From contig NZ_LN890656.1 of the NCBI RefSeq assembly GCF_900066015.1, positions 496,001 through 560,000 on the forward strand: a stretch of 64,000 bases of DNA, written 5' to 3'. This DNA comes from Candidatus Promineifilum breve (GTDB lineage: Bacteria; Chloroflexota; Anaerolineae; Promineifilales; Promineifilaceae). Made by a program: the position numbers and the translations under genes. Positions 2,209 through 42,806 of this stretch are shown here, one piece after another (within the stretch, counting starts at the first letter, position 1; each line of letters starts with the position of its first letter). A model generated the notes under the pieces. The model worked only from the letters and a program-made list of their open reading frames with translations, made no database searches and had not been told where the DNA came from.

Positions 2209-2907
2209 CTATGAGCTTGATTGGAGGGTTTGCCTGAACGCTTCGTGCTCCGGGGTGGCGATGCCCGCTCTCAAGTCGGCCAGCAATCCGGCCACGTCAT
2301 CGGCCCAAAATTTGTCCGAATGGAAATGCAGCCCGGGAAAGGCCTGGCTTCTGATGAGCCCATCCGCGCCAGGCGCGACGGCTACGTAGCGCCCCTCATC
2401 CAGTTGATACCAGATCGTCTCGCGTTCCAGCGTGAGCAGGATCACGTACTCCCGCACCCCGGCGCGACGATAGACCCGCATTTTTTCGTGCAGGTCGTAG
2501 GCGGCGCTGGAAATGGCGACCTCCACGACCAGTTCCGGCGCGCCGTGGAGATAGCTGCCGACGGCCTTCGTCTGGCCGCCCTCGGCCACACACAGGGCCG
2601 CGTCGGGTTGCACTTCGTTTTCCGCGTCCAGCCGCACGGTGGCATTGTCGAGAAGGAGTAAGCCCGGCGTGGCCGCGCAATAAGTGCCAAGCCAGCCTAT
2701 AACGGTCGCATGGCGACTACTGTGTTCTACGCCGACAGGCGACGGCACGTAGACAACACCTTCGATGAGTTCCGCTTTTTTCAAATGGGGCTGGGCGTGG
2801 TAACGACGCTCGAATTCGGCGCGGGTGAGGTGATCGCCGTTCTGGAGCGCGGGAATGGCGGCGTCCGGTATTCGTTTTTTCGCTTTTTCCTGAGTCCTGA
2901 CGCTCAT
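2209..2907 (-). CDS. Uma2 family (DUF820) putative restriction-like endonuclease
   Basis: 232 residues. The PD-(D/E)XK-like core of the Uma2/DUF820 family is recognisable: LIEGVVYVPSPVGVEHS near residue 48, VQPDAALCV (acidic residue), APELVVEVAISSAAYDLHEK and the GVREYVILL strand. These proteins are abundant in Cyanobacteria and Chloroflexota; their nuclease activity is predicted from the fold and the biological role is unsettled. The GVREYVILL segment deviates from the common GVxEYWxxD, so activity is uncertain here. It is followed by an intrinsic terminator and preceded by clpB on the same strand; two further Uma2 loci occur in the window. Confidence 0.85.
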   Translation of the reverse strand: MSVRTQEKAKKRIPDAAIPALQNGDHLTRAEFERRYHAQPHLKKAELIEGVVYVPSPVGVEHSSRHATVIGWLGTYCAATPGLLLLDNATVRLDAENEVQPDAALCVAEGGQTKAVGSYLHGAPELVVEVAISSAAYDLHEKMRVYRRAGVREYVILLTLERETIWYQLDEGRYVAVAPGADGLIRSQAFPGLHFHSDKFWADDVAGLLADLRAGIATPEHEAFRQTLQSSS

Positions 2908-2962
2908 GGCATGACCTTTGATTTAGTTAGGCGCAACTACCATAAATGATTATATCACATCA

Positions 2963-2996
2963 AGACCTGACAGGTTTCAGAAAACCTGTCAGGTCT
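2963..2996. repeat. Family D palindrome (CCTGTCAGG), likely clpB terminator
   Basis: Perfect 15-bp inverted repeat AGACCTGACAGGTTT (2963-2977) with 2982-2996 around a 4-nt centre, starting 6 bp beyond the clpB stop. Related copies occur at 23474-23517 and 59647-59695. No strong T-run follows on the minus strand. Confidence 0.8.
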
Positions 2997-3001
2997 ACTC
3001 C

Positions 3002-5605
<2,604 letters not shown>

Positions 5606-5624
5606 TGTCTACCTTCCGCAAACT

Positions 5625-5840
5625 TGTAGGGCGGGTTGGCAACCCGCCTTCTTCCACCCTGGGCGGGATACCATCCCGCCCTACAATATTTGTAGGGCGG
5701 GTTGGCAACCCGCCTTCTTCCACCCTGGGCGGGATACCATCCCGCCCTACAATATTTGTAGGGCGGGTTGGCAACCCGCCTTCTTCCACCCTGGGCGGGA
5801 TACCATCCCGCGCTACATTTAGGGCGGGTTGGCAACCCAC
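5625..5840. repeat. 66-bp tandem array of family C palindromes
   Basis: Units start at 5625, 5691 and 5757 (period 66 bp), with a partial fourth from about 5819. Each unit carries GTAGGGCGGG, GTTGGCAACCCGCC, a spacer TTCTTCCACCCTGG and GGCGGGATACCATCCCGCC, and can fold into a long hairpin. A single related element lies at 34006-34083. Because 66 is a multiple of three the array keeps several frames open, but nothing suggests coding. Confidence 0.95.
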
Positions 5841-6014
5841 GTCTGACCGCGAGACAAAAATCTCGCGCACCGATGGATAGTATGCCACAACCGGATCAGA
5901 AATTCGTTAGCCGGAAGTCAGAAATGCCTTAACAGTGGAAATTTGCTCCCAGCATGGCGCTCAGGACCGGTCATAACCCCCCTCCAACACAGCCGGAGGA
6001 TATACCTAATGACG

Positions 6015-6047
6015 TGACATTCGTCGGAAAAACACATGACATTCGTC
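6015..6047. promoter_or_regulatory. Direct repeat TGACATTCGTC, 22-bp spacing
   Basis: The 11-mer TGACATTCGTC occurs exactly at 6015-6025 and 6037-6047, two helical turns apart, 160 bp upstream of the secreted protein gene at 6209. The arrangement resembles a tandem activator site. No factor can be named from sequence. The rest of 5841-6208 shows no gene. Confidence 0.45.
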
Positions 6048-6208
6048 ACTATCCCCCACCAAATAAAGCTGCTTAGAATAATCAGTAGGGGAAGACTTCT
6101 CTCGCCGGAACCCATTAGATCAAGCCAGTCTGACCGATTCTGACGATCGGCAAGCCTCCCATCTCGATTCACCTCATTGTTCTTTGCTGTGAGTAAGGAG
6201 CCAGCAAA

Positions 6209-7510
6209 ATGAATACCAAGCGGATCATGCAGTGGGTAATCGTGCTGTTTCTATTGGCCGCGCTGCCGGTGATGACGGCGGTGTTGGCGCAGGGACAGGA
6301 ACCGGCGGCCAAGCAGTTGCCGGTCGCCACGGAGAAGGGCGAGTCGGCCGCGCCCGAAACATATAACAAGTACGAGAGTGAGGCGAACAACACGTTCGCG
6401 ACCGCCGACCCGATGAATATCGGGGACGTCATGGGCGGGGTCATCGGGAGCGCCGGTGATATCGATTACTTCAAGTTCTCGCCGGCCGAGAGAGGCTATG
6501 TCCTGATTGACATGGAGGCACAATCCATCGGGTCGACAAATCTCGACACGGTAATTTGCCTCTATAATTGGGCCGGCACGTTGGAGAAGTGCAACGACGA
6601 CACCTATTCAAGCCCGGACTCGATCCTGTTCTACAGTTCCGATCCGGCGCCATCACCCTACTACGTCACTGTGATCGATTATGCAAATTCCAGTGGCGGG
6701 GCCGATCATGACTACGAGTTGATTGTGTCCAGCCCCTTGCTGATCAGCGCGGATGCGAAAAAATTCGGGACGAAGGTAATTGACGGCATCTCCTTCCAGT
6801 CGCAGGATATTATGGCCTGGTCGGAGCTGAATACCGGCGACGAGAAGTGGATGATGTTCTTTGACGGTTCGGATGTCGGTGTCGACAAGCCGATGGCGTC
6901 TTTCGCCTATCAGGGTTCTCCCGGTGTCGATACCTTGATCATGGCGTTCCCCACGAATTTCACCATTCCGGGGCTAGGCACCGCAACACCCTATCATGTC
7001 GCGGCGTTCGATTTTGATGTCGCCGGGCCGGATACGGAGGGGGAGTTCACGTGGATTCACTCCGCGTGGAATAATGCCGATGGTTTATCGACGGCAGGCG
7101 AAAAGATCGATGCCTTCGATGTAACCGGCGGCGCCTATTGTTGGGGAGAGTACATCAGTACAACCGGCGCGGCCAAGCTGAAGGGATACTGGGGTAGCTT
7201 CTTCAACCAGGCCGACGAGGATATATTCGTGTGGAAAGAATCCTCCCCCTTCGGCTGGGATTACTGCTTCGACGGCAGCAATGTCCCCGGCTTGGCGGCC
7301 GAGGATGTTTACGCCCTGGCCTATGATGTTTTGAACAACCGGATGCTCATGACTATCGTGGGGAAAGGCAATATTGCCGGCCACCTTGTTACCCAGAAGG
7401 ACATCTTCGCCATCAACTTCCCCAGCTACACCTGGGGCGGTATCGTCTGGCACGGGCCAGATCACGGCTGGAACTTCAATATCGATGCGTTTGAGTGGAC
7501 CGGCTGGTAA
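6209..7510 (+). CDS. Secreted PPC-domain protein with GSDVG modules
   Basis: 433 residues. A signal peptide (about 1-28, hydrophobic VIVLFLLAALPVMTAVLA, cleavage likely before QGQ) is followed by a pre-peptidase C-terminal (PPC)-like domain at about 45-175 with ANNTFATADPM, the DIDYFKF core and the closing DHDYELIV strand. The C-terminal half (about 185-433) holds three modules marked by FDGSDVG, GLSTAGEKIDAFDV and FDGSNVPGLAAEDV. The same three-module block occurs in the proteins at 37192 and 46882. PPC domains are usually beta-sandwiches on exported proteins; no catalytic domain is seen. AAGGAG precedes the ATG by about 9 bases. A strong terminator follows at 7556. Confidence 0.85.
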   Translation: MNTKRIMQWVIVLFLLAALPVMTAVLAQGQEPAAKQLPVATEKGESAAPETYNKYESEANNTFATADPMNIGDVMGGVIGSAGDIDYFKFSPAERGYVLIDMEAQSIGSTNLDTVICLYNWAGTLEKCNDDTYSSPDSILFYSSDPAPSPYYVTVIDYANSSGGADHDYELIVSSPLLISADAKKFGTKVIDGISFQSQDIMAWSELNTGDEKWMMFFDGSDVGVDKPMASFAYQGSPGVDTLIMAFPTNFTIPGLGTATPYHVAAFDFDVAGPDTEGEFTWIHSAWNNADGLSTAGEKIDAFDVTGGAYCWGEYISTTGAAKLKGYWGSFFNQADEDIFVWKESSPFGWDYCFDGSNVPGLAAEDVYALAYDVLNNRMLMTIVGKGNIAGHLVTQKDIFAINFPSYTWGGIVWHGPDHGWNFNIDAFEWTGW

Positions 7511-7555
7511 CGGCCGGCTGGGTCAGCCCAGAGCGCGACCCATCCTCTGAAAGTC

Positions 7556-7598
7556 GAATCCGCCCGGCGGCCTGGAACCGCCGGGCGGATTCGTTTTC
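7556..7598 (+). terminator. Intrinsic terminator
   Basis: 15-bp perfect stem GAATCCGCCCGGCGG (7556-7570) with 7578-7592, 7-nt loop, followed by GTTTTCC. It ends the transcript of the secreted protein gene and insulates the downstream operon. Confidence 0.85.
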
Positions 7599-7682
7599 CT
7601 CAAGCTGTGTAGTCCATGAATGAGTCCCTTTCCCGACCGACGATGCAACCGGAACGGCCATTCATGCGTAATAATACACAGT

Positions 7683-9014
7683 ATGTCGGTTGTTACGAAC
7701 GACCGGCGTCTATTGACGCCGGAGCAGATTGCGGGCCTGGCCCCCGACCACGCCACGTTGCGTGGTGCGCGGGAGTTGGCCGGGGGCGATAACTGGCTGT
7801 CCAGCGGCTATCACCACAGCGACGGCCGCCGCCTGCTCTGGGCCGAATTCCCCGAAAGCCGCCGTCCCGCCACGCAAACGGCCATCACCTTGCCCACCTT
7901 GCGCGCGGCCTGCCACTGCGCCGCCCTGCGCTTCCCCTGCCGCCACGTCGTCGCCCTGCTGCTGCGCGACGACGCCGGCCGCCTCGAACCAGCCCAACCC
8001 CCACCGTGGGCCGCCGGTCTGACCCGCGCCCGATCGGCCGCCACCAAACCCGCCGCGCCGGCCACCGACGACCGCCGCCGGGCCGCCCTGTTGGCCGGTA
8101 TGGCCGACCTGCACCTGTGGCTGGCCGACCTGACCCGCCACGGCCTGGCCGACCTGCCGCGCCGCGACCGCCGCTTCTGGAACGACATGGCCGACCGGCT
8201 GGCCGGGAGCTACGCCGTCGAGGCCGCCCGCGAACTGCGCGAACTGGCCCTCATCCCCGGCAGCGGCCCCCATTGGCCGGAGCGCCTGCTGCCGCGCCTC
8301 GGCCGTCTGGCCTTGCTGGCCGAAGCCTGTCGCCACCTCGACGACCTGCCGCCGGGCGAGCGCGGCGACGTGCTGGCCGCCGCCGGGCGGCCGCCGCGCC
8401 CCGCCGATGACCTCGTCGCCGACGACCCTGTCGCCGACGACTGGCTCATCGTCGGGCGGCGACAGGACACCGTCAACCGCCAACACCGCGAGCGCGTCTG
8501 GCTCCACGGCCTCGCCTCCGGCCGCTGGGCGCTGCTGAGCGACACCTACACCATCGGGCGGCGCGAAGGCGTCTATTTGCCCGCCGGGGCCACGGTCGGC
8601 GGCGAACTGGCCTTCCTGCCCTCGGCCGCGCCGCTGGCCGCCCGTGCCGCGGCCGATCTGCAACTCTGCCCCACCTCGCCCGGCGAGCAGCCCGTGGCCG
8701 GCGATCTCGATCAGGCCATCGCCGCCTATGCCGCCGCGCTGGCCGCCAACCCGTGGCTGCGCGTCTATCCGCTGGCGTTGGCCCACGTCACGCTGGAGCC
8801 GCCGGCCACCGCCGCGTCCACGTGGCGCGTCCGCGATGGTGGCGGGCGCTGGCTGCCGCTGCCGCCGCGCTTCGCCCACGGCTGGCGGCTGCTGGCCCTG
8901 ACCGGCGGGCGGCCGATGACCCTCTTTGGCGAATGGGACGGGGCGACCTTCACGCCGCTCAGCGTCTATTGGGACGGCTGGCGCGCCCTGGCCGGCTGGC
9001 GGGGGTTGCCATGA
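7683..9014 (+). CDS. SWIM zinc-finger protein (first gene of MoxR/VWA operon)
   Basis: 443 residues from the ATG at 7683, chosen because MSVVTNDRRLLTPEQIAGLA matches the usual start of this family; an ATG at 7620 would add 21 residues with no family resemblance. The SWIM motif is at about residues 77-90: CHCAALRFPCRH gives the C-x-C-x(n)-C-x-H zinc ligands, which usually bind DNA or protein partners. The rest is Ala/Leu/Arg rich with no catalytic motif recognised. Its stop overlaps the start of the DUF5691 gene (ATGA), so the two are translationally coupled. It heads a five-gene operon with MoxR and VWA proteins; its role there is unknown to me. Confidence 0.85.
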   Translation: MSVVTNDRRLLTPEQIAGLAPDHATLRGARELAGGDNWLSSGYHHSDGRRLLWAEFPESRRPATQTAITLPTLRAACHCAALRFPCRHVVALLLRDDAGRLEPAQPPPWAAGLTRARSAATKPAAPATDDRRRAALLAGMADLHLWLADLTRHGLADLPRRDRRFWNDMADRLAGSYAVEAARELRELALIPGSGPHWPERLLPRLGRLALLAEACRHLDDLPPGERGDVLAAAGRPPRPADDLVADDPVADDWLIVGRRQDTVNRQHRERVWLHGLASGRWALLSDTYTIGRREGVYLPAGATVGGELAFLPSAAPLAARAAADLQLCPTSPGEQPVAGDLDQAIAAYAAALAANPWLRVYPLALAHVTLEPPATAASTWRVRDGGGRWLPLPPRFAHGWRLLALTGGRPMTLFGEWDGATFTPLSVYWDGWRALAGWRGLP

Positions 9015-10546
9015 GCGATGCCCTGACCGGCGCGGCCCTGCTCGGCGCGGCGCGGGCCGGGTTGCCGCCGGCCGAAACGCTGCCGGCGGCGTTGGCCGCG
9101 CTCCACGCTGAACTGAGCCAACGCCCACCGGCCGAGGCGCTGCTGCCGCTGATCGGCGCGACGGCGCTCTACGAGGCCGCCGGCCGCCGGCCCGCCCGCG
9201 ATGAAAGCGGCTGGCGCTTGCCCGCCTTCCGGCCGGAGGGGGATCTACCCCCCTGCTCCCCGGCCGCGGCCCACCTGCTGGAGCGCCTGTTGAACGGGCA
9301 AGACACGCCCCTCTTGCCGGAGTTTCTGGCTCGCCTGGCCGCCGCCGGGCAGCGCGCCCCGGACGACTTGCTGCCCTACGTGCTGGAACATGGCGCGAAA
9401 ATCCCCCGCCTGCGCCCGCAACTGCTGCCTATCGTGGGTGAGCGTGGCCGCTGGCTGGCGGCGCTCAATCCGGCCTGGCGCTATGCCGCCGTCGATCCGG
9501 CCGACCCGCGCTCGTTGCGCGGCGCGTGGGAGGCCGACCCCGCCGGGCGCGCGCCGCTGGCCGTCTATGTCCGCCAACGCGACCCGGCCGCCGCCCGCCG
9601 CCTGATCGAATCGACCTGGCGGGCGGAGCCGGACACGGCGCGGCGGGCGCTGCTGGGCGCGCTGGAAAACGGCCTGTCAATGGCCGACGAGCCGTTTCTG
9701 GAGCGGGCCTTGGACGACCGCGACGCGCTGACCCGGCACAAGGCGGCCGACCTGCTGGCCGCGTTGCCCGATTCGCGCCTCGTCGGGCGTATCACCGCCG
9801 CCGCCGGCGATATCCTGATCCTGAAGGACGGCAGCCTGGCCCCCCACTTTCCGGGGCCGGTCAGCGACGCGTTGGCCCGCGATGGCGTGGCACGCGAAGG
9901 CGTGGCACGCGAGAGCGTGGCCCGCACCGAGAACGACGCCCGCCCCGGCGCGCCGCGCTCGCCGACGGAATGGTCGCGCCTGCTCAGCAGCACCGTCGGC
10001 GTTATCCCCCCGGCCCACTGGGCGGCGCGCTTCGGGCTGGCGCCGGCGGCGCTGGTGAAGGCTGCGCTGGCCGGCAAGTGGCCGCGCACGCTGCTGAGCG
10101 CCCTGGCGACGGCCGCCCTGCGCCGCCGCGATATGGGCTGGATCGACGCTCTGTTCGCCGCCGACGGCTATAGCGAACGGGTGGGGCTATTACTAGGGGC
10201 GCTGGAACCGGCCGATTGCTACGCCCGCCTGGCCGAGTGCCTGCCGGCCGGCGACGACGCGGCCGTTGTCGTCTTCCTGCGCCGCTGGCCCGGCCCGTGG
10301 GATGAGCCGAGCGCCCGGCAATTGATCGACTTTCTGGCCGGCCACGCCGCCATTGCCCCGGACACGCGCCACGGCCCGACGCTGCGCTTTCTGTCGCGCC
10401 AATTCGCCCAGCGCTGCCCGCCGTCGCTGGCCGGCCACGCCGCCGATGCCGCCGCCCGCGCCGCCGGAAGTGCCTGGAAAGCGGCGCTCAGTCAGCTGGC
10501 GGCTACGCTGCGGCTGCGGCATCAGTTGGTTGAGGCGGTGGGATGA
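9011..10546 (+). CDS. DUF5691 family protein
   Basis: 511 residues from ATG 9011, which sits in a 4-bp ATGA overlap with the SWIM gene; the longer frame upstream is the SWIM gene read in another frame. MSDALTGAALLGAARAG is the typical family start. The protein is Ala/Leu rich with HEAT-like helical repeats around 210-260 (WEADPAGRAPLAV, SLRGAWEADP) and a second block from 330. Residues 286-305 come from a 15-bp tandem DNA repeat (four units, 9866-9925) encoding xALAR-DGVAR-EGVAR-ESVAR. Function unknown; its constant association with SWIM, MoxR, DUF5682 and VWA genes suggests a scaffold or adaptor role (inference). Confidence 0.85.
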   Translation: MSDALTGAALLGAARAGLPPAETLPAALAALHAELSQRPPAEALLPLIGATALYEAAGRRPARDESGWRLPAFRPEGDLPPCSPAAAHLLERLLNGQDTPLLPEFLARLAAAGQRAPDDLLPYVLEHGAKIPRLRPQLLPIVGERGRWLAALNPAWRYAAVDPADPRSLRGAWEADPAGRAPLAVYVRQRDPAAARRLIESTWRAEPDTARRALLGALENGLSMADEPFLERALDDRDALTRHKAADLLAALPDSRLVGRITAAAGDILILKDGSLAPHFPGPVSDALARDGVAREGVARESVARTENDARPGAPRSPTEWSRLLSSTVGVIPPAHWAARFGLAPAALVKAALAGKWPRTLLSALATAALRRRDMGWIDALFAADGYSERVGLLLGALEPADCYARLAECLPAGDDAAVVVFLRRWPGPWDEPSARQLIDFLAGHAAIAPDTRHGPTLRFLSRQFAQRCPPSLAGHAADAAARAAGSAWKAALSQLAATLRLRHQLVEAVG

Positions 10547-10584
10547 GCGATGAGAAACGCATAGACGCCAAGGAAGGAATAATT

Positions 10585-10653
10585 TGCCTTTGTAGTTAGT
10601 CGATTTATCGCCGTTCTTAAGAGGAGCACTAAAGTGCTTACTACGAGCAAAGA
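10585..10653. repeat. Family B palindrome inside the MoxR operon
   Basis: Imperfect inverted repeat GTAGTTAGTCGATTTATCGC...GTGCTTACTACGAGC between the DUF5691 stop and the MoxR start. It resembles copies at 27994, 42094 and 44103. It could form a hairpin in the polycistronic mRNA and change relative expression of the two halves of the operon. Confidence 0.85.
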
Positions 10654-10673
10654 GGGCAACAGAGGAGAACCAC

Positions 10674-11756
10674 ATGATTCAACCCATCCAGCGTGAACTG
10701 GCCGAGCAAGCCTACGGCCGCGAGCTTGACCTGCTGGCGCGGGCCGACCGGCGGCCCCGACCGCCCAACTGGCGGCTGTCGCCGTGGGCCGTCTCGACCT
10801 ACATCCTGGGCGGCACGCTCGACGACGGCACGCCCATCACCCCCAAATACATCGGCCGCCCGCGGCTGATCGAGATCGCCATCGCCACGCTGACCACCGA
10901 CCGGGCGCTCTTGCTGCTGGGCGTGCCGGGCACGGGCAAGACGTGGCTGTCGGAGCATCTGGCCGCGGCCGTCTCCGGCGATTCGACCCTGCTGGTGCAG
11001 GGCACGGCCGGCACCAGCGAGGAAGTCATCCGCTACGGCTGGAACTACGCCAGCCTCATCGCCCGCGGGCCGTCGGCCGAGGCCCTCGTCCCCAGCCCGG
11101 TGCTCAGCGGCATGCGCGACGGCAAGCTCGTCCGCGTCGAGGAATTGACCCGCATCCCGTCCGACGTGCAGGACGCGCTCATCACCATCCTGTCCGAAAA
11201 GCTGCTACCCATCCCCGAACTGGGTCAGGCGGTGCAGGCCGTCAAGGGTTTCAACGTCATCGCCACGGCCAACGACCGCGACCGGGGCATCAACGACCTG
11301 TCCAGCGCCCTCAAGCGCCGCTTCAACACCGTTGTGCTGCCGCTGCCGGCCACGCCGGAAGAGGAAGTGACCATCGTCACCCGGCGCGTGGCCGACCTGA
11401 GCCGGGCGCTGGAGCTGCCGGCCGAACCGCCGGCGGCCGAGGAAATCCGCCGCGTGGTCACCATCTTCCGCGAACTGCGCGGCGGTCTGACCGAGGACGG
11501 CCGGGCCAAGGTCAAATCCCCCAGCGGCACGCTGAGCACCGGCGAGGCCATCTCCGTGCTCAACAGCGGCCTGGCCCTGGCCGCCCACTTCGGCGATGGA
11601 CGGCTGGCCGCCGAAGATTTGGCGGCGGGGCTGACCGGCGCGGTGATCAAAGACCCGGTGCAGGATAGCGCCATCTGGCAGGAGTATCTGGAGACGGTCA
11701 TGCGCGAGCGCGACGGCTGGGGCGACCTCTACGCCGCCTGCCGGGAGTTAGTGTAG
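10674..11756 (+). CDS. MoxR-type AAA+ ATPase
   Basis: 360 residues. Walker A GVPGTGKTW at 83-91, an acidic Walker B-like segment KLVRVEELTR near 150-160, sensor 1 VIATANDRDRG near 200 and the ALKRRF arginine-finger region near 215 define a MoxR ATPase. MoxR ATPases act as chaperone-like motors and normally pair with a VWA protein (established for RavA-ViaA and CbbQ-CbbO); a VWA partner is encoded two genes downstream. GAGGAG precedes the ATG by about 6 bases. The gene is followed after 5 bp by the DUF5682 gene. Confidence 0.93.
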   Translation: MIQPIQRELAEQAYGRELDLLARADRRPRPPNWRLSPWAVSTYILGGTLDDGTPITPKYIGRPRLIEIAIATLTTDRALLLLGVPGTGKTWLSEHLAAAVSGDSTLLVQGTAGTSEEVIRYGWNYASLIARGPSAEALVPSPVLSGMRDGKLVRVEELTRIPSDVQDALITILSEKLLPIPELGQAVQAVKGFNVIATANDRDRGINDLSSALKRRFNTVVLPLPATPEEEVTIVTRRVADLSRALELPAEPPAAEEIRRVVTIFRELRGGLTEDGRAKVKSPSGTLSTGEAISVLNSGLALAAHFGDGRLAAEDLAAGLTGAVIKDPVQDSAIWQEYLETVMRERDGWGDLYAACRELV

Positions 11757-11761
11757 CCGCC

Positions 11762-14155
11762 GTGAGCGAACTGCGCGTTTTCGGCGTGCGCCACCACGGG
11801 CCGGGCACGGCGCGGGCGCTGTTGGCCGGGCTGGCCGCTTTCACCCCCGATTGCGTGCTGGTCGAGGGGCCACCCGACGCCGACGACCTCATCCCCTGGC
11901 TGGCCCACCCGGCGCTGGAGTTGCCCGTGGCCCTGCTGGTCTACCGGCCCGACGCGCCGCAGCGGGCCGTGTTCTACCCGTTCGCCGTCTTTTCGCCGGA
12001 GTACCGGGCACTGCGTTACGCGCTCGACCACGGCGCGGCGGCCGGTTTCATGGATCTGCCCCGCCGCCACACGCTGGCCATCGACTATCCGGCGGCCATG
12101 CCCCCCGGCGAGCCGTTTCGCCAACTGGCCGAGGCCGCCGGTCACGACAGCTACGAAACGTGGTGGAACGCGGCCGTGGAACAGTCCATTGCCAATGACG
12201 AGCTCTTCACCGCCGTGCTGGAACTGGCCGCCGAACTGCGCCGGGCTGCGCCCGACCCGCCGGCCGCGGCCGAGACCCCGGAGCAGCGCCTGGCCCGGCA
12301 GCGCGAGGCGGCCATGCGCGCCATTATCCGCCGCGCCGCGGCCAACGGCCATGCCCGCATCGCCGCCGTCTGTGGCGCGTGGCACTCCCCGGCGCTGGTG
12401 GATGCCCTCCAACTGCCCGGCGATGACGACGCCGCGCTGTTGGCCGATCTGCCGGCTGTGGATGTGGCCGCGGCCTGGGTTCCGTGGACCTACGGCCGCC
12501 TGGCCCAGAGCGGCGGCTACGGCGCGGGCATCGCCTCGCCCGGCTGGTATGATCACCTGTGGGCAATGGGCGACATCTCTTCGCGGTCGCCTGGTGAAAT
12601 GGAGACGTTCCAGCGCAACGTCTCTACCGTCTGGCTATCGCGGGTGGCGGCGCTGCTGCGCGAGGACGGGCTGGACACCTCGCCCGGCCACGTCATCGAG
12701 ACGGTGCGGCTGGCCGAGGCGTTGGCGGCGTTGCGCGGGCGGCCGTTTCCGGGGCTGCCCGAACTGGAAGAGGCGACCCGCAGCGCCATGTGCGCCGGCG
12801 ACGAGGAGCCGGTACACCTCATCCGGCGGCGGCTGATCGTCGGCGAACGTATGGGTCTCGTGCCGCCCGACGCCCCGGCCGTGCCCTTGCAGCGCGATCT
12901 GGCGGCGCAACAGGCCCGCCTGAAACTCCGCCCGGAGCCGGAACCGAGCACGCTCAAGCTCGACCTGCGCAACGAAAGCCACCTGGAGCGCAGCCGCCTG
13001 CTCCACCGGCTGGAGTTGCTCGATGTGCCCTGGGGCGTGGCCGCCAAAGCCAAGGGGCAACCGCTCGCCGGGTATAGCGAACTGTGGCAACTGCAATGGA
13101 CGCCGGAATTGTCGCTGCGGGTCATCACCGCCGCGCCCTACGGCAACACCGTGCGCGACGCCGCCGTGGCCCGCGCCGCCGAGGTGGCCGCGACCCACGA
13201 CGAGCTGCCCGGGCTGACCGAACTGGTTGACCGGGTGGTGCTGGCCGACCTGCCCGAAGCGCTGCCGGCCATCCTGGCCCGCATCGAGGAGTTGGCCGCA
13301 TTGGGCAACGACGCCGGCCACATGCGCGTCGTCCACATGCTGGCGACGCTGCCGCCGCTGGCCGATGCGCTGCGCTATGGCGGGTTGCGCCGCTCGGCCG
13401 AGCATTTGCCGCTGTTGCGCCGCGTCTTCGACCATCTGCTGACGCGGGCCTGCCTGGCCCTGCCCGCCGTGTGCGTGGGGCTGGATGAGAAGGCCGCGGC
13501 CGAGATGAACGAGCGCCTGTCGGCCGCCGGATCGGCCGTTCGTCTCATTCAGGACGCCGACGCCACCGCCCGCTGGCACGAGGCGTTGGGACGGCTGGCC
13601 GACCGCCGCGCCGTCCAGCCCGGGGTGGCCGGGCGGGCCACGCGCCTGCTCCACGACGAGGCCGCGCTGCGCGCCGACGGCGTGCTGGCCCGGTTGGAGC
13701 GCGCCCTGACGCCCGGCGGCTCGGCCGAAGTGGCCCGCTACGCCGCCGACTGGCTCGACGGCTTCCTGCGCGATAGCGGCCTGTTGCTGGTGCACGACCG
13801 CGCCTTATGGCACGCCATCGATCACTGGCTGCTGGGGCTGGGGGATGAGCGCTTCGTGGCCGTGCTGCCGCTGTTGCGCCGCACCTTCGCCGCCTACCCG
13901 GAGAGCGTGCGCCACCAACTCCACGAGCGCTTGCGCCGGACGGGGCGCGAGCCGTCCCCGGCGGCGCGACCGGCAACGTTTGACGCGGCGCGGGCGGCGG
14001 CGGTGTTGCCGGTGCTTGGTCGGCTGCTGGGCGAAGACCCTCTCCCTAACCCTCTCCCAAAGGGAGAGGGAACTCCGATCCCCCTCCCGGAGGGAGAGGG
14101 AACTCCGATCCCCCTCCCTCCGGGAGGGGTTAGGGGAGGGAGGTCTGACCAATGA
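11762..14155 (+). CDS. DUF5682 family protein
   Basis: 797 residues from a GTG start 5 bp after the MoxR stop. MSELRVFGVRHHGPGTARAL followed by VLVEGPPDADDLIP is the hallmark N-terminus of DUF5682; an AAVCGAWHSPAL segment near 205 includes a conserved G-x-W-H. The N-terminal alpha/beta region recalls TraB/ChaN-like folds (HHGPG, VEGP and GAWH positions), suggesting metal or hydrolase chemistry, but this is only inference. The final 40 residues, from EDPLPNPLPKGEG on, come from a repeated CCCTCTCCC/GGGAGAGGG palindrome tract at 14038-14142 and look like an acquired tail. The last four bases overlap the VWA gene. Confidence 0.85.
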   Translation: MSELRVFGVRHHGPGTARALLAGLAAFTPDCVLVEGPPDADDLIPWLAHPALELPVALLVYRPDAPQRAVFYPFAVFSPEYRALRYALDHGAAAGFMDLPRRHTLAIDYPAAMPPGEPFRQLAEAAGHDSYETWWNAAVEQSIANDELFTAVLELAAELRRAAPDPPAAAETPEQRLARQREAAMRAIIRRAAANGHARIAAVCGAWHSPALVDALQLPGDDDAALLADLPAVDVAAAWVPWTYGRLAQSGGYGAGIASPGWYDHLWAMGDISSRSPGEMETFQRNVSTVWLSRVAALLREDGLDTSPGHVIETVRLAEALAALRGRPFPGLPELEEATRSAMCAGDEEPVHLIRRRLIVGERMGLVPPDAPAVPLQRDLAAQQARLKLRPEPEPSTLKLDLRNESHLERSRLLHRLELLDVPWGVAAKAKGQPLAGYSELWQLQWTPELSLRVITAAPYGNTVRDAAVARAAEVAATHDELPGLTELVDRVVLADLPEALPAILARIEELAALGNDAGHMRVVHMLATLPPLADALRYGGLRRSAEHLPLLRRVFDHLLTRACLALPAVCVGLDEKAAAEMNERLSAAGSAVRLIQDADATARWHEALGRLADRRAVQPGVAGRATRLLHDEAALRADGVLARLERALTPGGSAEVARYAADWLDGFLRDSGLLLVHDRALWHAIDHWLLGLGDERFVAVLPLLRRTFAAYPESVRHQLHERLRRTGREPSPAARPATFDAARAAAVLPVLGRLLGEDPLPNPLPKGEGTPIPLPEGEGTPIPLPPGGVRGGRSDQ
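14038..14142. repeat. CCCTCTCCC/GGGAGAGGG palindrome cluster within coding sequence
   Basis: Three successive GC palindromes joined by the direct repeat GAACTCCGATCCCCCTCCC. They are read in frame as the C-terminal tail of the DUF5682 protein (NPLPKGEGTPIPLPEGEG) and lie directly before the VWA start codon. Confidence 0.9.
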
Positions 14156-15300
14156 ACGAACACGACGAACGAACGCGCCGCTGGCGGTTGGTTTTGGGCG
14201 GGGAAGAGGAGCAGGGGAGCGGGGGTGCGGGGGAGCAGGGGGGAGAGGGAGCGGCAGGCGACAAGACGCAGCTATCGCCGCGCGACAAGGCGCTGGATGA
14301 GGCATTGGGGGCGCTGTATGGCGAAAGCCACGGCGGCGACCTGAGTAAGTCATCGCCCGACGTGGCCCGCTGGCTGGGCGACATCCGCGCCTACTTCCCC
14401 GATGACGTGGTGCAGGTGATCCAACGCGACGCCCTGCGCCGCATGGACGCCCGCCGCCTCATCGAACACCCCGAACTGCTGGCCCAAGTGGAGCCGGACG
14501 CGGCCCTGGCGGCCACGCTGCTGTCGCTGCGCAAGGTGATGCCGCCGCGTACCCAGGAGACGGCCCGCCAGGTCGTGGCCCGCGTCGTGGCCGACCTGAC
14601 GCGGCGGCTCGAACTGCCGTTGCGCCAGGCGATCAGCGGCAGCCTCAACCGCGCCGCCCGCGCCCACCGGCCGCGCCGCCTCCAGGAAATCGACTGGAAC
14701 CGCACCATTCGCGCCAACCTGAAGCATTACCAGCCGGCCCTGGGCACGGTCATCCCCGAAAAGCTGGTCGGCTACGGCCGCCGCCGGCCCACGCTGAAAG
14801 ACGTGATCCTGCTGGTCGATACCAGCGGCTCGATGGCGACGTCGGTGGTCTATGCCGGAATCGCCGCCGCCGTGCTGGCCTCGATCCCCGCGCTGAATAC
14901 GCGGCTGGTGATGTTCGATACGGCCGTGGTCGATCTGACGGATCAGCTGGACGACCCGGTGGCGATGCTCTTCGGCGTGCGCCTGGGCGGGGGCACCAAT
15001 ATCGACCGGGCGCTGACCTACGCCCGCGCGTCCATCACCCGGCCGCGCGATACGGTGGTCATCCTCATCTCCGATCTCTTCGAGGGCGGCAGCAAGCCCG
15101 GCGTCGTCCGGCAGGTGGCAGCGCTATTGGCCGACGGGGTGGCCTTCATCGCCCTGCTGGCCCTCAACGACCAGGGCGCGCCCCGCTACGACGCGGTGAT
15201 GGCCCAGGAGTTGGCCGACCTGGGGGCGCGGGCTTTCGCTTGTACGCCGGAGGAGTTCCCGGAGTTGATGGGGCGGGCGCTGAACGGGAAGTTGTCGTAA
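14152..15300 (+). CDS. VWA domain protein, partner of MoxR ATPase
   Basis: 382 residues. A VWA domain occupies about 215-380 with a complete MIDAS: DTSGS at 223-227, the GGGTNIDRAL threonine loop, and VVILISDLFEGG for the third aspartate. N-terminal to it is a helical region (50-200) common to MoxR-associated VWA proteins. Residues about 17-37 (GGEEEQGSGGAGEQGGEG) come from a G-rich decamer-like tract at 14203-14262 that is probably a repeat expansion in a flexible segment. The ATG lies in an ATGA overlap with the DUF5682 gene. Expected role: substrate-recruiting partner of the MoxR ATPase in the cytoplasm. Confidence 0.92.
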   Translation: MNEHDERTRRWRLVLGGEEEQGSGGAGEQGGEGAAGDKTQLSPRDKALDEALGALYGESHGGDLSKSSPDVARWLGDIRAYFPDDVVQVIQRDALRRMDARRLIEHPELLAQVEPDAALAATLLSLRKVMPPRTQETARQVVARVVADLTRRLELPLRQAISGSLNRAARAHRPRRLQEIDWNRTIRANLKHYQPALGTVIPEKLVGYGRRRPTLKDVILLVDTSGSMATSVVYAGIAAAVLASIPALNTRLVMFDTAVVDLTDQLDDPVAMLFGVRLGGGTNIDRALTYARASITRPRDTVVILISDLFEGGSKPGVVRQVAALLADGVAFIALLALNDQGAPRYDAVMAQELADLGARAFACTPEEFPELMGRALNGKLS

Positions 15301-15308
15301 CGATTCGG

Positions 15309-18300
15309 TCAGCCCTGCTCTCTTTTCCATTCGGCCGCGATTTCCCGATTGGCCGCGACTTGCTGGAGAAAGGTTTGGCGCAACGCGGCGTCCTCGATGA
15401 GCGCGGCCTGGGCCTGGAGGAGCGCAACCCCGGCGGCCAGGATACCCGGCGCGCGGGGGTCGTTGTCGGCTCTCAGGGCGCGATAGGCCGTCCAAAAGAG
15501 GCGCAGCGGCTCAGCGGAAGAAGGCAGCGGTGCGCCGCCCAGGAGCGGCAGAAACCCCTCGGCCTGGGCCAGCGCCGCGGCCGTGTCGCCTTGGGCCAGG
15601 GCCAGGTCGGCCAAAGCGCGCCGGGCCGTGGCCGCGGCCAACGGATTAGTGCCCTTCAGGGCCAGAGCCAGGGCCGCTTGCAGGGCCTCGGCCGCTTCTG
15701 CCCACCGCGCCGAACGCGTGGCGCACTCCCCGGTCAGCAATCGAAAATGAAAGGTGTAGGGCGACAGAGGCGCTTCCGCCAGCGCGGCCGTCACCAGTTG
15801 CCGTGCCTGCCCATCGTCGCCGAGGTGGAAGGCAGCCCGGGCCAGCCGATAATAGAGGAAATGGTTGACGAGGCCGTGGCGTTGCCGCAGTTCGAGGGCG
15901 GCGCGGCCGTGCTGCAAGGCGTTTTCATAGTCACCCAAATAAGTCAGGACGCCACAGAGAGCGCTGAGCGTCCTGCTCATTGAGTCCGGCTCGGCGAGCA
16001 GCTGATGCAGCCAAAGAGCTTTTTCCCGGTAATGTAGCGCCTGCTCCAAAGAGCCTTCAGTTTCCAGCAACTCCGCAATGGAGTTACTGGTTTGCGCCTC
16101 GGCCAGCGAACTGCCCATTGCGCGGCACAATGCCAGCGCCGCCTCATAACGCTGCCTGGCCTCTGCTCTTTGCCCCCTGAGCAGGAGATAATTGCCCAGA
16201 GTGTTTAGGCACATATGTTCCACAGTCCGCGCCCGGTGCTGGTCGAGGCTGTCCGTTGCGGGAACCCGGCGGCCGAAAGCAATGGCTTGTTCCAGGCTTT
16301 CGCTGATACGGTCATACTCTTCGGCGGGCAGCAGGGCGAGGCTTGCCGCCAGGGCCAGACCGAAGCCAAAGGCAAAGGCACCGAGCGATTGTGTCAGGGG
16401 ATCCGCGGCCAGTTGCGCCCAATCAACGGCGACCCGAGCCAGTTCAAGGGCCGTGTCGGTCTTCATGTCGCGCTGTCCGACCAGCGCTGCCTGAAAGGCC
16501 AGGGCGCGGCCGAGCAAACGCGCCTCAATGCTCCCGGTTGCCGACGGGTGGAGGTGGGCCGCCAATTGGCCTAGCAGTTCAATTGCCCCGTTTAGCAGCC
16601 CTTCAGAGATGTAATAGCCCATCATACTAATTAGGGCGTCGTCCAGTAACGGCCAGACTTGATTCTGGGTGGCCCACTGCCAGGCGACGCGCACATTTTC
16701 GAGCACGGGGCGAATGTCGGCCCGCGCCTGCTGGGGGGTGGCGCTATGCCAGGCCCTTTCGCGGCCGGCGACAAAGCGCAGATAATAAACGGCCTGGCGC
16801 TCGCTCGCCGCATCTTCGGCCGCCGGCATCTGCTGCAATCGTTCCCGCGCAAATTGGCATACCAGCGAGTGCAGGGTATACCAGCCCGGCGAGGTCTGGC
16901 GCAAGAGGGATTTATTCACCAGGCTGACCAAATCCACCATACGCGCTTCGGCCACCGTCAGGGCCGCTTCGCGGGAAAAAGCGCCGCGCAGCACCGCCAG
17001 TTGCGCCAAAACGCACTGCTCATCCGCGGAGAGCAAGCCCCAGGCATAGTCAAAGGCGGCCCGCGGGCTACGCTGGCGGGCGGGCAGGTCAACGCGGGCG
17101 GCGCTTTCCGCGCTGAGGAAGTCGAGATTGGCCGCCATCTCGGCCGCGATTTCGGCGCAGGTGAAATGACCGGCCCAAGCGGCGGCCAGTTCAATGACCA
17201 GGGGCAGCCCTTCGGCCAGGCGGCAGATGCGAATCAGGCCGCGGCGTTCCGCTTCGTCCAGCGCCGGCCGCGCCCCCCGTTCCCGCGCCCGGTCGAAGAA
17301 GAGCCGCGCGCTGCTATAGGCGAGCAGCGACTCCCGGCTCGCGGCGGCCTCCTCAGGAGGCGTCGGCAACCCTTCGAGCATCAACAGGCGCTCGCCGCCG
17401 ACGCCCAGCGGCTCGCGCGAGGTGACCAGGGCGCGAACGCCGGGCGCGTTTTGCAGCAGCCGGAGCAGGATGGGCCAGGTGGATAGGAGACGCTCATAAT
17501 TGTCCAGCACCAGCAGCAGGCGACGGTCGCCCAGGCTGCGCGCCAGTTGCCGGTCGGGGCTTTCCGGCCCGGCCAAATTCAAGCCCAACGTCGTCGCCAC
17601 GGTGGACACAAAGTTGTCACCCACGTCCAAATTCGTGCCGGCCGTTGCGTTGTCGCCCGGCAGGCCGGCCAGCGGCACAAACCAGACGCCGTCGGGAAAG
17701 GCTGAAGGCTGAGGGCTGAAGGATGAGGGCTGGACAATCGTAGGCTGGGCGACGAAAGAGGAAGCGACGGCCAGGGCGAGGCGCGTTTTGCCCACGCCGC
17801 CGATGCCGCTGATCGTCACCAACCGCGCCCCCGGCTCGGCCAGCCAACCCGACAGTTCCGCCAACTCGCCTTCCCGCCCCAACAACGACGTCAGCCGCAC
17901 GGGCAAATTGTGAAGCGTGGCGAGTGGCGCGTTGGAGAATCTCCCCTGCCCCCCTGCCCCCCTGCTCCCCTGCACTCTGCTCCCCTCCCGAATAGCCTCC
18001 ACCAATTGCACCGTCTCCGGCTGGGGCGCGACGCCCAGCTCCTCGGCCAACAGGCGGCGGGCGTGGTCGTATTCGGCCAGCGCGGCGGCCTGGTTGCCGG
18101 CGGCGGCCAGCGCGTGGAGCAATTGGCGGATCGTCTCTTCGCGCCAATGGTCGAGGGCCAATTGCCGGCGGGCCAACGTGGCCGCGGTCGGGTAGTCGCC
18201 GGCGGCCAACGCTTCGTCGGTCAGCCGGAAGAGCGCGTCCAGCGCCAGCCGCCGGCAATGTTCGCGCTGGAGGAGCAGCCATTCGTCGAACGCCGGGCAG

Positions 18301-18731
18301 CCGGACAGGCTGAAACCGGCCATAAACTCACCGGCGTAGAGGGCCGCGGCGTCGCGGAGCGCGGCGAGGTCGGCCGCCCCCGGCGTTGTCCGGCGCTCCA
18401 GCAGGGCCAGGAAGCGCGGCGCGTCCACTTCGGCCGCGGCGGCCACGTTCCATTGCGCCTGTCGCCGGGTCAGCAGCAGAAAGGGCGGGTCGCCCTCGCC
18501 GATGGCCCGCCGTAGCCAGATCAGGGTTTGGGAGAGGTTGCGCAGGGCCGGCGCGTCGGGCATCTCCGGCCAGAAGAGGGCGGCCAGGGTGGCCCGTTCG
18601 CGCGGCCGGTCCGCTTCCATGACGAGATAGGCCAGCAGCGCGCGCGCTTTCTGGCTGCGAAAACCAGTGATCGGGCGACCTTCATGCCGGGCGGCAAAAC
18701 CGCCCAGGAGGGTCAATGTTAGTTGCGACAT
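15309..18731 (-). CDS. SARP/AfsR-like regulator: BTAD, NB-ARC ATPase, TPR
   Basis: 1140 residues. N-terminus: winged-helix plus BTAD region (1-250; LTLTLLGGFAARHEG start, SQKARALLAYLV, TLAALFWPE). Centre: STAND/NB-ARC ATPase with Walker A GIGGVGKTR near 310 and Walker B LLLVLDNYE near 405. C-terminus: TPR-like helical repeats from about 680. Such proteins bind direct-repeat promoters and activate adjacent genes when a signal or ATP state is sensed. Two low-complexity insertions are in frame: a Gly/Ser/Arg linker at about 250-265 (DNA 17935-17995) and a segment between Walker A and B (PSSFSPQPSAF, DNA 17694-17745). It is divergent from 18899, with a matching direct repeat between them. Confidence 0.93.
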   Translation of the reverse strand: MSQLTLTLLGGFAARHEGRPITGFRSQKARALLAYLVMEADRPRERATLAALFWPEMPDAPALRNLSQTLIWLRRAIGEGDPPFLLLTRRQAQWNVAAAAEVDAPRFLALLERRTTPGAADLAALRDAAALYAGEFMAGFSLSGCPAFDEWLLLQREHCRRLALDALFRLTDEALAAGDYPTAATLARRQLALDHWREETIRQLLHALAAAGNQAAALAEYDHARRLLAEELGVAPQPETVQLVEAIREGSRVQGSRGAGGQGRFSNAPLATLHNLPVRLTSLLGREGELAELSGWLAEPGARLVTISGIGGVGKTRLALAVASSFVAQPTIVQPSSFSPQPSAFPDGVWFVPLAGLPGDNATAGTNLDVGDNFVSTVATTLGLNLAGPESPDRQLARSLGDRRLLLVLDNYERLLSTWPILLRLLQNAPGVRALVTSREPLGVGGERLLMLEGLPTPPEEAAASRESLLAYSSARLFFDRARERGARPALDEAERRGLIRICRLAEGLPLVIELAAAWAGHFTCAEIAAEMAANLDFLSAESAARVDLPARQRSPRAAFDYAWGLLSADEQCVLAQLAVLRGAFSREAALTVAEARMVDLVSLVNKSLLRQTSPGWYTLHSLVCQFARERLQQMPAAEDAASERQAVYYLRFVAGRERAWHSATPQQARADIRPVLENVRVAWQWATQNQVWPLLDDALISMMGYYISEGLLNGAIELLGQLAAHLHPSATGSIEARLLGRALAFQAALVGQRDMKTDTALELARVAVDWAQLAADPLTQSLGAFAFGFGLALAASLALLPAEEYDRISESLEQAIAFGRRVPATDSLDQHRARTVEHMCLNTLGNYLLLRGQRAEARQRYEAALALCRAMGSSLAEAQTSNSIAELLETEGSLEQALHYREKALWLHQLLAEPDSMSRTLSALCGVLTYLGDYENALQHGRAALELRQRHGLVNHFLYYRLARAAFHLGDDGQARQLVTAALAEAPLSPYTFHFRLLTGECATRSARWAEAAEALQAALALALKGTNPLAAATARRALADLALAQGDTAAALAQAEGFLPLLGGAPLPSSAEPLRLFWTAYRALRADNDPRAPGILAAGVALLQAQAALIEDAALRQTFLQQVAANREIAAEWKREQG

Positions 18732-41468: not shown

Positions 41469-42806
41469 TTAGCTTTGCATAGCATTGCTTAGAAATTCCG
41501 CCCACCCCTCGCCAAATTCGACGGCCAACCCATGCGGATGCACCCAGCCCAACTGCCAACGGTGCGTCGCGCCGGCGCCGTCGTTGGGCCAATAGTCGGC
41601 CGTCCACGCCGCCCAGTCGCGCACCGGCGGCGGCGGCCCAGCCCAGGCCGGTTCCCACTGCAACCACAACACCGGCCCAGCCTGCCGCCGCGCCCATTCG
41701 TCCACCATGCTGCGCAGCGACGCGCCCCGGTCGGGCAGGTACATGGTCATAATGGTGTTGAACAGGACGATTGGGGCGTGGGGTGCGTCTTCAGTGCGTT
41801 TCAACGCACTTTGTGTATCAGCCGCGGGATTCATCCCGCGGTTAATGGGCCGCGCGATGACATCGTTCATCTGCCTCAAGAAGCCCGGCAACTCATCCGG
41901 CAGGCGCAGCGGCCACAGCCGCACCGGCGCGTCGCTCTGCTCCACCGCGCGCAGGGCGGCGATCCCCTCGCGCAGCCGGGCCATCCGTTGCGGCTGGTCG
42001 CCCCAGACGTAGGCGGCCAGCGTCAGCTCATCGGCCGCGTCCCGCAAATGAAACGGGTGGATGTCGCCGCCATCGCGCGACAGGATACGTACTCTTCGTT
42101 CGTAGTCAGGCGATTTATCGCCGTTCTCCAGAGCGGCACTAAAGTGCCTACTACGAGCAAAGAAGCCCCGCGCCATCATGGTAAACTGCGCCGGCCCTTC
42201 GCCCAACTCCAGCAGCACCCGCTCCGGCTCAGCCCCGTCCACCAGCCGATACCCCCGCCGCTCAGCCACCAGATTCAACCCCGCGCTGGCCCCTAACTCG
42301 ATCAGATGCACCGCCGGCCAGCCGAGACAGGCCACCGGCAATAACCAGGCCACCCCCCGCCCCGTCTCGTTGGTCTGCACCGTGGCCCGGCCGATGAAGG
42401 CGGTGTAGGCGTCGCGGCGGGCGAGGAGGGCGGCGTGGAGCGCAGGGGGGCTGGGGAGCAGGGGTGCAGGGGAGGAGGAGAGCGCGCCCTCGCGCCTCTC
42501 CTCTTCATTCCTAATTCCTAATTCGTAATTCCTAATTTCCCCATAGTATGGCGCAATGGCCGCCACCGCCGGCTCCCCGGCCAGCACGTCGCGGTGCAGC
42601 GCGGCCAGGAGAAGCAGGGTCACGTCGAACGGGGCGCGGTCGGCCGCGGCCCCGAGCAGCCAATCGACCAGCGGGTCCTCCCCCTCGCCCACCAGCCAAT
42701 CGGCGACGCAGCCGAACAGGTGGGCATAGAGGGGGGAGTAGCCGTCGGCGAACCGCTGTTGCTCGCGGAAGCGGGCTTCCAGTTGGCGGCGCAGGTCTGA
42801 GGGCAT
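41469..42806 (-). CDS. DUF2332 family protein with three repeat-derived insertions
   Basis: 445 residues. The conserved core reads REQQRFADGYSPLYAHLF, GEDPLVDWLLG, LLARRDAYTAFIGRATVQTNETGR, VHLIELGASAGLNL, and AYVWGDQPQRMARL with WLQWEPAW near the end. The family's function is unknown to me; the LIELGASAGLNL motif resembles an S-adenosylmethionine-binding loop, so a methyltransferase-like fold is possible. Three segments seem inserted from DNA repeats: EIRNYELGIRNEEERREG with the following Ser/Pro run (families F and G-rich), FFARSRHFSAALENGDKS (family B) and ARPINRGMNPAADTQSALKR. The reading frame stays open across all three. Confidence 0.85.
   Translation of the reverse strand: MPSDLRRQLEARFREQQRFADGYSPLYAHLFGCVADWLVGEGEDPLVDWLLGAAADRAPFDVTLLLLAALHRDVLAGEPAVAAIAPYYGEIRNYELGIRNEEERREGALSSSPAPLLPSPPALHAALLARRDAYTAFIGRATVQTNETGRGVAWLLPVACLGWPAVHLIELGASAGLNLVAERRGYRLVDGAEPERVLLELGEGPAQFTMMARGFFARSRHFSAALENGDKSPDYERRVRILSRDGGDIHPFHLRDAADELTLAAYVWGDQPQRMARLREGIAALRAVEQSDAPVRLWPLRLPDELPGFLRQMNDVIARPINRGMNPAADTQSALKRTEDAPHAPIVLFNTIMTMYLPDRGASLRSMVDEWARRQAGPVLWLQWEPAWAGPPPPVRDWAAWTADYWPNDGAGATHRWQLGWVHPHGLAVEFGEGWAEFLSNAMQS
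41790..41845. repeat. Repeat insertion inside DUF2332 gene (two hairpins)
   Basis: AGTGCGTT/AACGCACT (41793-41810) and CCGCGGGAT/ATCCCGCGG (41822-41841) hairpins in frame, encoding NRGMNPAADTQSALK on the minus strand. Confidence 0.7.
42094..42164. repeat. Family B palindrome inside DUF2332 gene
   Basis: CTTCGTTCGTAGTCAGGCGA...GTGCCTACTACGAGCAAAGA within the DUF2332 frame; the minus-strand reading gives FFARSRHFSAALENGDKSPD. The same element is intergenic at 10585, 27994 and 44103. Confidence 0.9.
42433..42540. repeat. G-rich tract and family F repeat inside DUF2332 gene
   Basis: GGGGGGCTGGGGAGCAGGGG-type tract followed by TTCCTAATTCCTAATTCGTA; read in frame as NYELGIRNEE plus a Ser/Pro-rich linker on the minus strand. 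Confidence 0.8.

What the first reader, a model, noticed from the sequence alone, without database searches (positions are those of the whole stretch)
7683..15300. SWIM-DUF5691-MoxR-DUF5682-VWA operon as a candidate undescribed system
Five co-directional genes with ATGA overlaps (9011 and 14152) and a 5-bp gap (11757-11761) form one unit, insulated upstream by a strong terminator. MoxR ATPases and VWA proteins are established partners in chaperone-like remodelling. The three other families (a SWIM zinc finger, DUF5691, DUF5682) have no function that I know of. The VWA protein has a full MIDAS and the ATPase a full Walker A, so the motor looks active. The DUF5682 N-terminus (RHHGPG, VEGPP, GAWH) hints at a metal- or hydrolase-like core. 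The set could be a metal-insertion, protein-assembly or conflict system.
Basis: partly seen in the sequence, partly recalled or inferred. Interest (0 to 1): 0.75.

Follow-up and report, generated by a model that had tools for sequence, protein, structure and literature searches.

The report
Conserved YehL-type MoxR–VWA–hydrolase operon
Five neighbouring genes form an unstudied ATP-driven protein-remodelling machine whose order is kept across twelve bacterial phyla and whose core is also present in 98% of E. coli genomes examined; one part, a protein of unknown function, looks like an enzyme of the TraB family, which gives a first testable idea of what the machine does.

Summary
The window holds SWIM–DUF5691–MoxR–DUF5682–VWA, all on + strand. 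Among 80 DUF5682 loci from public genomes, 57 carry all five genes and 55 of those keep the same order and strand, across 12 phyla. In seven loci SWIM and DUF5691 are fused into one protein. Flanking genes are not conserved.

It is not without known relatives: three of the proteins are homologues of E. coli YehL, YehM and YehP, and the SWIM protein matches YehQ weakly. yehLMPQ is found in 5,301 of 5,426 E. coli genomes and can be deleted. The MoxR 'YehL subfamily' is already named, but I found no functional paper on it in the library searched.

New here: DUF5682 carries an invariant GxxH/E/RE..M/GAxH set and a predicted N-terminal fold pointing to the TraB/TIKI hydrolase superfamily, followed by a helical solenoid. 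DUF5691 is predicted as a HEAT-like solenoid.

Best reading: an ATP-driven MoxR–VWA remodeller coupled to a TraB-like hydrolase, with SWIM and HEAT-like accessory proteins. Activity, substrate and assembly are inferred, not shown. Conflict-system and neighbouring-metalloenzyme readings found no support.

The parts
7555..7593 (+). Predicted hairpin (16 pairs, 13 G-C) followed by TTTTCC, upstream of the operon; candidate terminator
   Evidence: scan, sequence; function not tested
7683..9014 (+). SWIM zinc-finger protein, 443 aa; CHC-x6-CRH at residues 77-88; weak YehQ relative
   Evidence: below Pfam cut-off; CxC...CxH invariant in 36 aligned family members; YehQ E 4e-4
9011..10546 (+). DUF5691 protein, 511 aa; predicted all-helical HEAT-like solenoid
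   Evidence: E 1.5e-101; AlphaFold2 pLDDT 91.7; weak profile match to HEAT/alphaRep
10580..10653 (.). Interspersed repeat inside the 127-bp gap between DUF5691 and MoxR (84% identical copy at 42090-42163)
10674..11756 (+). MoxR AAA+ ATPase of the YehL type, 360 aa; Walker A GVPGTGKT, EE156/157, N200, R215/R216
   Evidence: (YehL 41%, E 6e-77)
11762..14155 (+). DUF5682 (YehM) protein, 797 aa; N-terminal TraB/TIKI-like domain (about 1-245) with G8..H11-H12, E35, R181-E182..M185, G205..H208; C-terminal helical solenoid (about 445-730)
14035..14150 (+). Repeat-rich C-terminal extension of DUF5682 (LPNPLPKGEGTPIPLPEGEGTPIPLPPGG), without counterpart in homologues, low confidence in the model
14152..15300 (+). 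VWA (CoxE-like) protein, 382 aa, complete MIDAS (D223xSxS227, T282, D308); YehP homologue
   Evidence: (34%, E 4e-69)

Best explanation
A five-protein ATP-driven remodelling machine of the E. coli YehL-YehM-YehP type. The MoxR AAA+ protein would form the ATPase ring and the VWA protein, through its MIDAS site, would bind a peptide or metal-linked carboxylate of the target or of DUF5682. ATP-driven movement would then activate, load or feed DUF5682, whose N-terminal domain resembles TraB/TIKI-superfamily hydrolases (putative metal-dependent peptidase or esterase) and whose C-terminal half is a helical solenoid. DUF5691 (HEAT-like) and the SWIM zinc protein, fused to each other in some bacteria, would act as scaffold and substrate recognition. 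SHOWN by sequence: conserved operon, homology to YehL/M/P, intact motor and MIDAS motifs, invariant TraB-like motif residues. PREDICTED: folds. INFERRED: physical complex, hydrolase activity, direction of coupling, substrate.
For: Same five-gene order and strand in 55 of 57 complete loci from 12 phyla; co-occurrence P about 1e-23; seven SWIM-DUF5691 fusions; MoxR-DUF5682-VWA core kept where SWIM is after VWA or DUF5691 is missing, as in E. coli and L078/L079, with another HEAT-repeat protein inside the cluster in L079. DUF5682: H11, H12, E35, R181, E182, M185, G205, H208 invariant in 17 diverse sequences and in a 54-row alignment. The TraB profile built here has invariant G45/H48, E74, R247/N248, G273/H276 with like spacing. 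The combined motif is in 54 of 54 DUF5682 rows and 8 of 687 flanking proteins. AlphaFold2 pLDDT 88; Foldseek best viral hit 'TraB family protein', probability 1.00, E 0.017, TM 0.47 on the target; VIA-align hit 7w5z_E on model residues 1-222, Z 8.9, from a complex reported to hold a TraB-family subunit. MoxR-VWA coupling is established elsewhere (PMC7159879).
Against: No activity or complex is shown. Profile comparison of DUF5682 with TraB is weak (hhalign probability 2.7%, P 0.017), although it beat the unrelated controls and TraB against erythromycin esterase scored no better. Foldseek E-values are above 0.001 in both libraries, and PDB hits are dominated by the helical half. Chain 7w5z_E was not verified to be the TraB-family subunit. 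The N-terminal domain was not folded alone. Some loci carry DUF5682 without the other genes (nine of 80, some close to a contig end), so it may act alone there.
Confidence: 0.5

Rival explanations
1. A MoxR-VWA chaperone that matures or inserts a metal cofactor into a client enzyme encoded elsewhere; DUF5682 is a client adaptor or metal carrier whose TraB-like site is not catalytic (compare heme-binding ChaN).
For: MoxR-VWA pairs such as CoxD-CoxE do this (PMC7159879; PMC3893208). The VWA protein is CoxE-like. TIKI-fold proteins include members that lack the catalytic residues (PMC6254334).
Against: Those systems usually sit beside their client (own knowledge); here flanks are not conserved over 12 phyla. 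Full retention of the TraB-like motif residues argues for a catalytic or metal site.
Confidence: 0.25
2. A biological conflict or anti-phage system, analogous to the MoxR-vWA ternary systems, with DUF5682 as a toxic effector hydrolase.
For: MoxR-vWA ternary systems are proposed conflict systems (PMC7159879). TIKI-fold proteins include protein-cleaving effectors (PMC6254334). Patchy in the window's phylum, 33 of 251 genomes.
Against: 5,301 of 5,426 E. coli genomes hold it. No PADLOC model matches beyond weak P-loop hits. 96 genes sampled from the flanks show no recurrent defence association. Components do not vary as effectors do: five constant genes in fixed order. One phage and 28 plasmid records only.
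Confidence: 0.1
3. Nucleic-acid-linked stress or repair function: the SWIM protein binds DNA or RNA and recruits the MoxR-VWA remodeller, with DUF5682 as scaffold.
For: SWIM zinc fingers can bind DNA or proteins (own knowledge). In E. coli the cluster follows yehF (WGR domain) and yehI (DUF4132).
Against: No recurrent neighbour of any kind was found in the 80-locus survey. The TraB-like motif set is unexplained.
Confidence: 0.1

Closest known systems
E. coli yehL-yehM-yehP-yehQ (MoxR 'YehL subfamily')
   Same: Homologous MoxR, DUF5682 and VWA in the same order; SWIM protein in the cluster
   Different: E. coli lacks DUF5691, the SWIM gene is last, and YehQ is longer with two CxC...CxH motifs
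RavA-ViaA
   Same: MoxR AAA+ with VWA partner gene
   Different: No BLAST homology of the MoxR beyond chance; VWA only very weakly related; no DUF5682, DUF5691 or SWIM
CoxD-CoxE, NorQ-NorD, CbbQ-CbbO
   Same: MoxR-VWA pair; VWA is CoxE-like
   Different: Those have dedicated client enzymes (own knowledge); here there are no conserved client neighbours
vWA-MoxR ternary conflict systems (VMAP, iSTAND, FtsH, beta-propeller; PMC7159879)
   Same: MoxR plus vWA plus a third protein
   Different: Third component is DUF5682; constant composition; core gene set of E. coli; bpMoxR match below its cut-off
TraB/PrgY/GumN, TIKI and erythromycin esterase superfamily
   Same: GxxH, E, R(N/E), GAxH motif set and predicted fold of the DUF5682 N-terminus
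   Different: Fused to a long helical solenoid and encoded with an AAA+/VWA pair; sequence similarity below significance

Membership tests
MoxR YehL subfamily | MoxR AAA+ closer to YehL than to RavA | tested here: met
   YehL 41% over 363 aa, E 6e-77; RavA E 0.47
MoxR YehL subfamily | Linked to YehM (DUF5682) and YehP (VWA) | tested here: met
MoxR YehL subfamily | SWIM protein (YehQ) in the cluster | tested here: met
   SWIM present, but homology to YehQ is weak (E 4e-4) and the position differs
MoxR AAA+ ATPase | Walker A, Walker B, sensor 1, arginine finger conserved | tested here: met
   (Walker B-like EE instead of DE)
MoxR AAA+ ATPase | Helix-2 insert of the MoxR clade | not tested
VWA with MIDAS | DxSxS...T...D | tested here: met
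   D223, S225, S227, T282, D308 invariant in 26 sequences
TraB/TIKI superfamily (DUF5682 N-terminus) | GxxH, E, R and GxxH motif residues | tested here: met
   in four-motif order with like spacing; the first G is not invariant in distant members
TraB/TIKI superfamily (DUF5682 N-terminus) | Superfamily fold | tested here: inconclusive
   Best BFVD hit TraB, probability 1.00 but E 0.017; VIA Z 8.9 to 7w5z_E; N-terminal domain not folded alone
TraB/TIKI superfamily (DUF5682 N-terminus) | Significant profile similarity | tested here: inconclusive
   hhalign P 0.017, probability 2.7%; TraB against erythromycin esterase itself not significant
TraB/TIKI superfamily (DUF5682 N-terminus) | Hydrolase activity | not testable with these tools
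   needs purified protein
HEAT-like solenoid (DUF5691) | Tandem helical pairs in a superhelix | tested here: inconclusive
   Model nearly all helical, pLDDT 91.7; profile match to alphaRep HEAT, E 3e-5; Foldseek E 0.01
vWA-MoxR ternary conflict systems | VMAP, iSTAND, FtsH or beta-propeller third component with variable effectors | tested here: not met
   No such domain over cut-off in Pfam scans of the five proteins; composition constant
Known anti-phage systems | Match to PADLOC models | tested here: not met
   only weak P-loop matches of the MoxR

The most novel reading that the evidence does not exclude
The operon encodes a previously unrecognised AAA+-driven proteolytic or hydrolytic machine: a MoxR-VWA motor that gates a TraB/TIKI-type metallohydrolase, with HEAT-like and zinc-finger substrate receptors, widespread in bacteria and part of the E. 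coli core genome.
Probability: 0.3. Interest if true: 0.85.

Novelty: new variant of a known kind. Interest (0 to 1): 0.62.

Why it matters
YehL is the other MoxR ATPase of E. coli K-12 beside RavA, and I found no functional study of it. A five-gene unit with nearly fixed order in 12 phyla must have a function worth keeping, yet three of its families are named only as unknown or by a weak zinc-finger match. Assigning DUF5682 to the TraB/TIKI hydrolase superfamily would give this machine a catalytic centre with four named residues that can be tested in laboratory E. coli, where the genes are non-essential.

Tried and rejected
Literature: no paper in the library mentions DUF5682 or DUF5691; all four yeh genes appear together only in a deletion list. 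NCBIfam and PADLOC gave no family for DUF5682, DUF5691 or SWIM above chance level. PDB sequence search found nothing convincing for DUF5682 or VWA; MoxR is nearest to midasin. Foldseek on the whole DUF5682 model gave only helical-repeat proteins at the top in the PDB, as expected for a long solenoid; not taken as evidence about the N-terminus. Absence of Ere and ChaN chains from that list is not taken as evidence. The search for TraB (PF01963) in the window's phylum found none, so the TraB profile was built from other genomes; ChaN (PF04187) gave too few sequences. A recurrent sixth gene was sought and not found; DUF5682-only loci sit beside unrelated genes such as SAICAR synthetase or HPPK. 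Defence-island reading rejected. The first related-locus scan failed because the alignment was too divergent and was repeated with closer sequences.

Full report
WHAT IS THERE. Window 7683-15300 carries five + strand genes: SWIM zinc finger, DUF5691, MoxR AAA+ ATPase, DUF5682 and a CoxE-like VWA protein. Two ATGA overlaps and a 5-bp gap are as described. A 127-bp gap separates DUF5691 from MoxR and holds an interspersed repeat. A GC-rich hairpin precedes the operon. The motor has Walker A GVPGTGKT, a Walker B-like EE, sensor-1 N200 and R215/R216; the VWA protein has a complete MIDAS. The SWIM match is under Pfam's cut-off, but CxC...CxH is invariant in 36 aligned family members.

IT IS A REAL UNIT. 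In 251 genomes of the same phylum DUF5682 occurs in 33, DUF5691 in 24 over cut-off, both in 23 (P about 1e-23). In the fetched contigs the order SWIM–DUF5691–MoxR–DUF5682–VWA recurs in most stretches not cut by a contig end. A scan of public genomes gave over 570 relatives, of which the best 80 loci were kept. Of these, 57 carry all five genes and 55 have the same order and strand, in 12 phyla; median gaps are -4 to +7 bp, with a few larger insertions. The two exceptions are shuffles, L123 and L153. In seven loci SWIM and DUF5691 are one protein. Independent annotation of Rhizobium, Methylosinus and Deinococcus megaplasmids shows the same order, with VWA unlisted in Methylosinus. No sixth gene recurs. 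Pairwise tree distances of the five proteins correlate (Spearman 0.47-0.77); shared ancestry of the hosts contributes to this, so it is only consistent with co-inheritance.

IT HAS KNOWN RELATIVES. The closest named relatives are E. coli YehL (41%, E 6e-77), YehM (28%, E 4e-35), YehP (34%, E 4e-69) and, weakly, YehQ (E 4e-4). E. coli lacks DUF5691 and has the SWIM gene last. PMC3893208 names YehL as one of the two MoxR proteins of E. coli K-12 and as a subfamily. The cluster is in 5,301 of 5,426 E. coli genomes, essentially always on the chromosome, and is deleted in the reduced genome DGF-298 (PMC10652928), so it is core but not essential. Three arrangements exist: the window type; MoxR–DUF5682–VWA–SWIM (E. 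coli, L078, L079); and VWA–MoxR–DUF5682 (L081-L083). The common core is MoxR–DUF5682–VWA. In L079 another HEAT-repeat protein lies between DUF5682 and VWA.

WHAT DUF5682 LOOKS LIKE. Seventeen diverse sequences share invariant H11, H12, E35, S78, E80, D98, W135, E140, R181, E182, M185, G205 and H208; a separate 54-row alignment agrees. The pattern G-x-x-H, then E about 24 residues on, then R[E], then G-A-x-H about 27 residues after R, is that of TraB/PrgY proteins, whose profile built here has G45/H48, E74, R247/N248 and G273/H276 invariant. The pattern as a regular expression fits all 54 DUF5682 rows, 11 of 14 TraB rows and 8 of 687 flanking proteins. Active-site His, Glu and Arg of TIKI-fold enzymes are described in PMC6254334. 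The AlphaFold2 model (pLDDT 88.3) has an alpha/beta N-terminal domain, with the motif residues at the ends of strands 3-9, 31-34 and 199-205 and in helix 173-194, and a helical C-terminal half. Foldseek against viral models put a TraB family protein first with probability 1.00, E 0.017. The second-look aligner found chain E of Tetrahymena complex IV over residues 1-222 at Z 8.9 (177 aligned residues, rmsd 4.7); that complex is reported to contain a TraB-family subunit (PMC10060162), though I did not verify that it is chain E. Profile-profile comparison is not significant. Taken together I consider the TraB/TIKI assignment likely (about 75%) but not proven. DUF5691 is predicted nearly all-helical at pLDDT 91.7 and resembles HEAT-type repeats.

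HOW IT MAY WORK. In established MoxR–VWA systems the VWA domain captures a peptide through its MIDAS and the AAA+ ring transmits force (PMC7159879). Applied here, the ring with VWA would act on DUF5682 or on its substrate. The TraB-like site would then hydrolyse something, or hold a metal or cofactor. DUF5691 and SWIM, fused in some lineages, would form the recognition arm. Every step in this paragraph after the first sentence is inference.

RIVALS. A chaperone for an unlinked metalloenzyme fits MoxR–VWA precedent, but no client lies nearby. A conflict system is unlikely given E. coli core conservation, no defence neighbours in the sample and constant composition. A nucleic-acid role via SWIM is open.

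NOVELTY. The subfamily name and E. coli genes are old; the wide, ordered five-gene unit, the fusions, the HEAT-like nature of DUF5691 and the TraB-like nature of DUF5682 are, as far as the searched library shows, not described. Subscription literature was not searchable, in particular the original MoxR subfamily classification, so part of the neighbourhood may be on record there.

Noticed in passing
L079:7589-9988: The MoxR ORF (799 aa) is interrupted right at the Walker A lysine (GEPGTAK|CVKHDTLI...) by what looks like an intein.
   Followed up: no
window 14035-14150: A repeat (CCCTCTCCC...GGGAGAGG units) runs in frame through the 3' end of DUF5682, adding about 40 residues absent from homologues; it ends at the ATGA overlap with VWA.
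   Followed up: partly
window 10580-10653 and 42090-42163: An interspersed palindrome-like element, 84% identical in two copies, one of them inside the operon.
   Followed up: no
window 5624-5838: Three near-perfect 66-bp tandem units, plus a partial one, containing palindromes, just upstream of a clpB-like gene on the - strand.
   Followed up: no
window 45827-47920: Eleven copies of a 141-bp-spaced tandem repeat.
   Followed up: no
window 15309-18731 (-): Convergent neighbour: BTAD/TPR regulator of 1140 aa with a weak NB-ARC match, not part of the conserved unit.
   Followed up: no
L002 (E. coli) 2475-9912: yehF (WGR domain) and yehI (DUF4132) lie directly upstream of yehLMPQ; whether this link is older than enterobacteria was not tested.
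   Followed up: no
L156, L159, L165, L167: Saprospiraceae have DUF5682 without the other four genes (contig ends permitting), next to unrelated housekeeping genes.
   Followed up: partly
L002:15101-16945: YehQ carries two CxC...CxH motifs (residues 70 and 166), the window protein only one.
   Followed up: no
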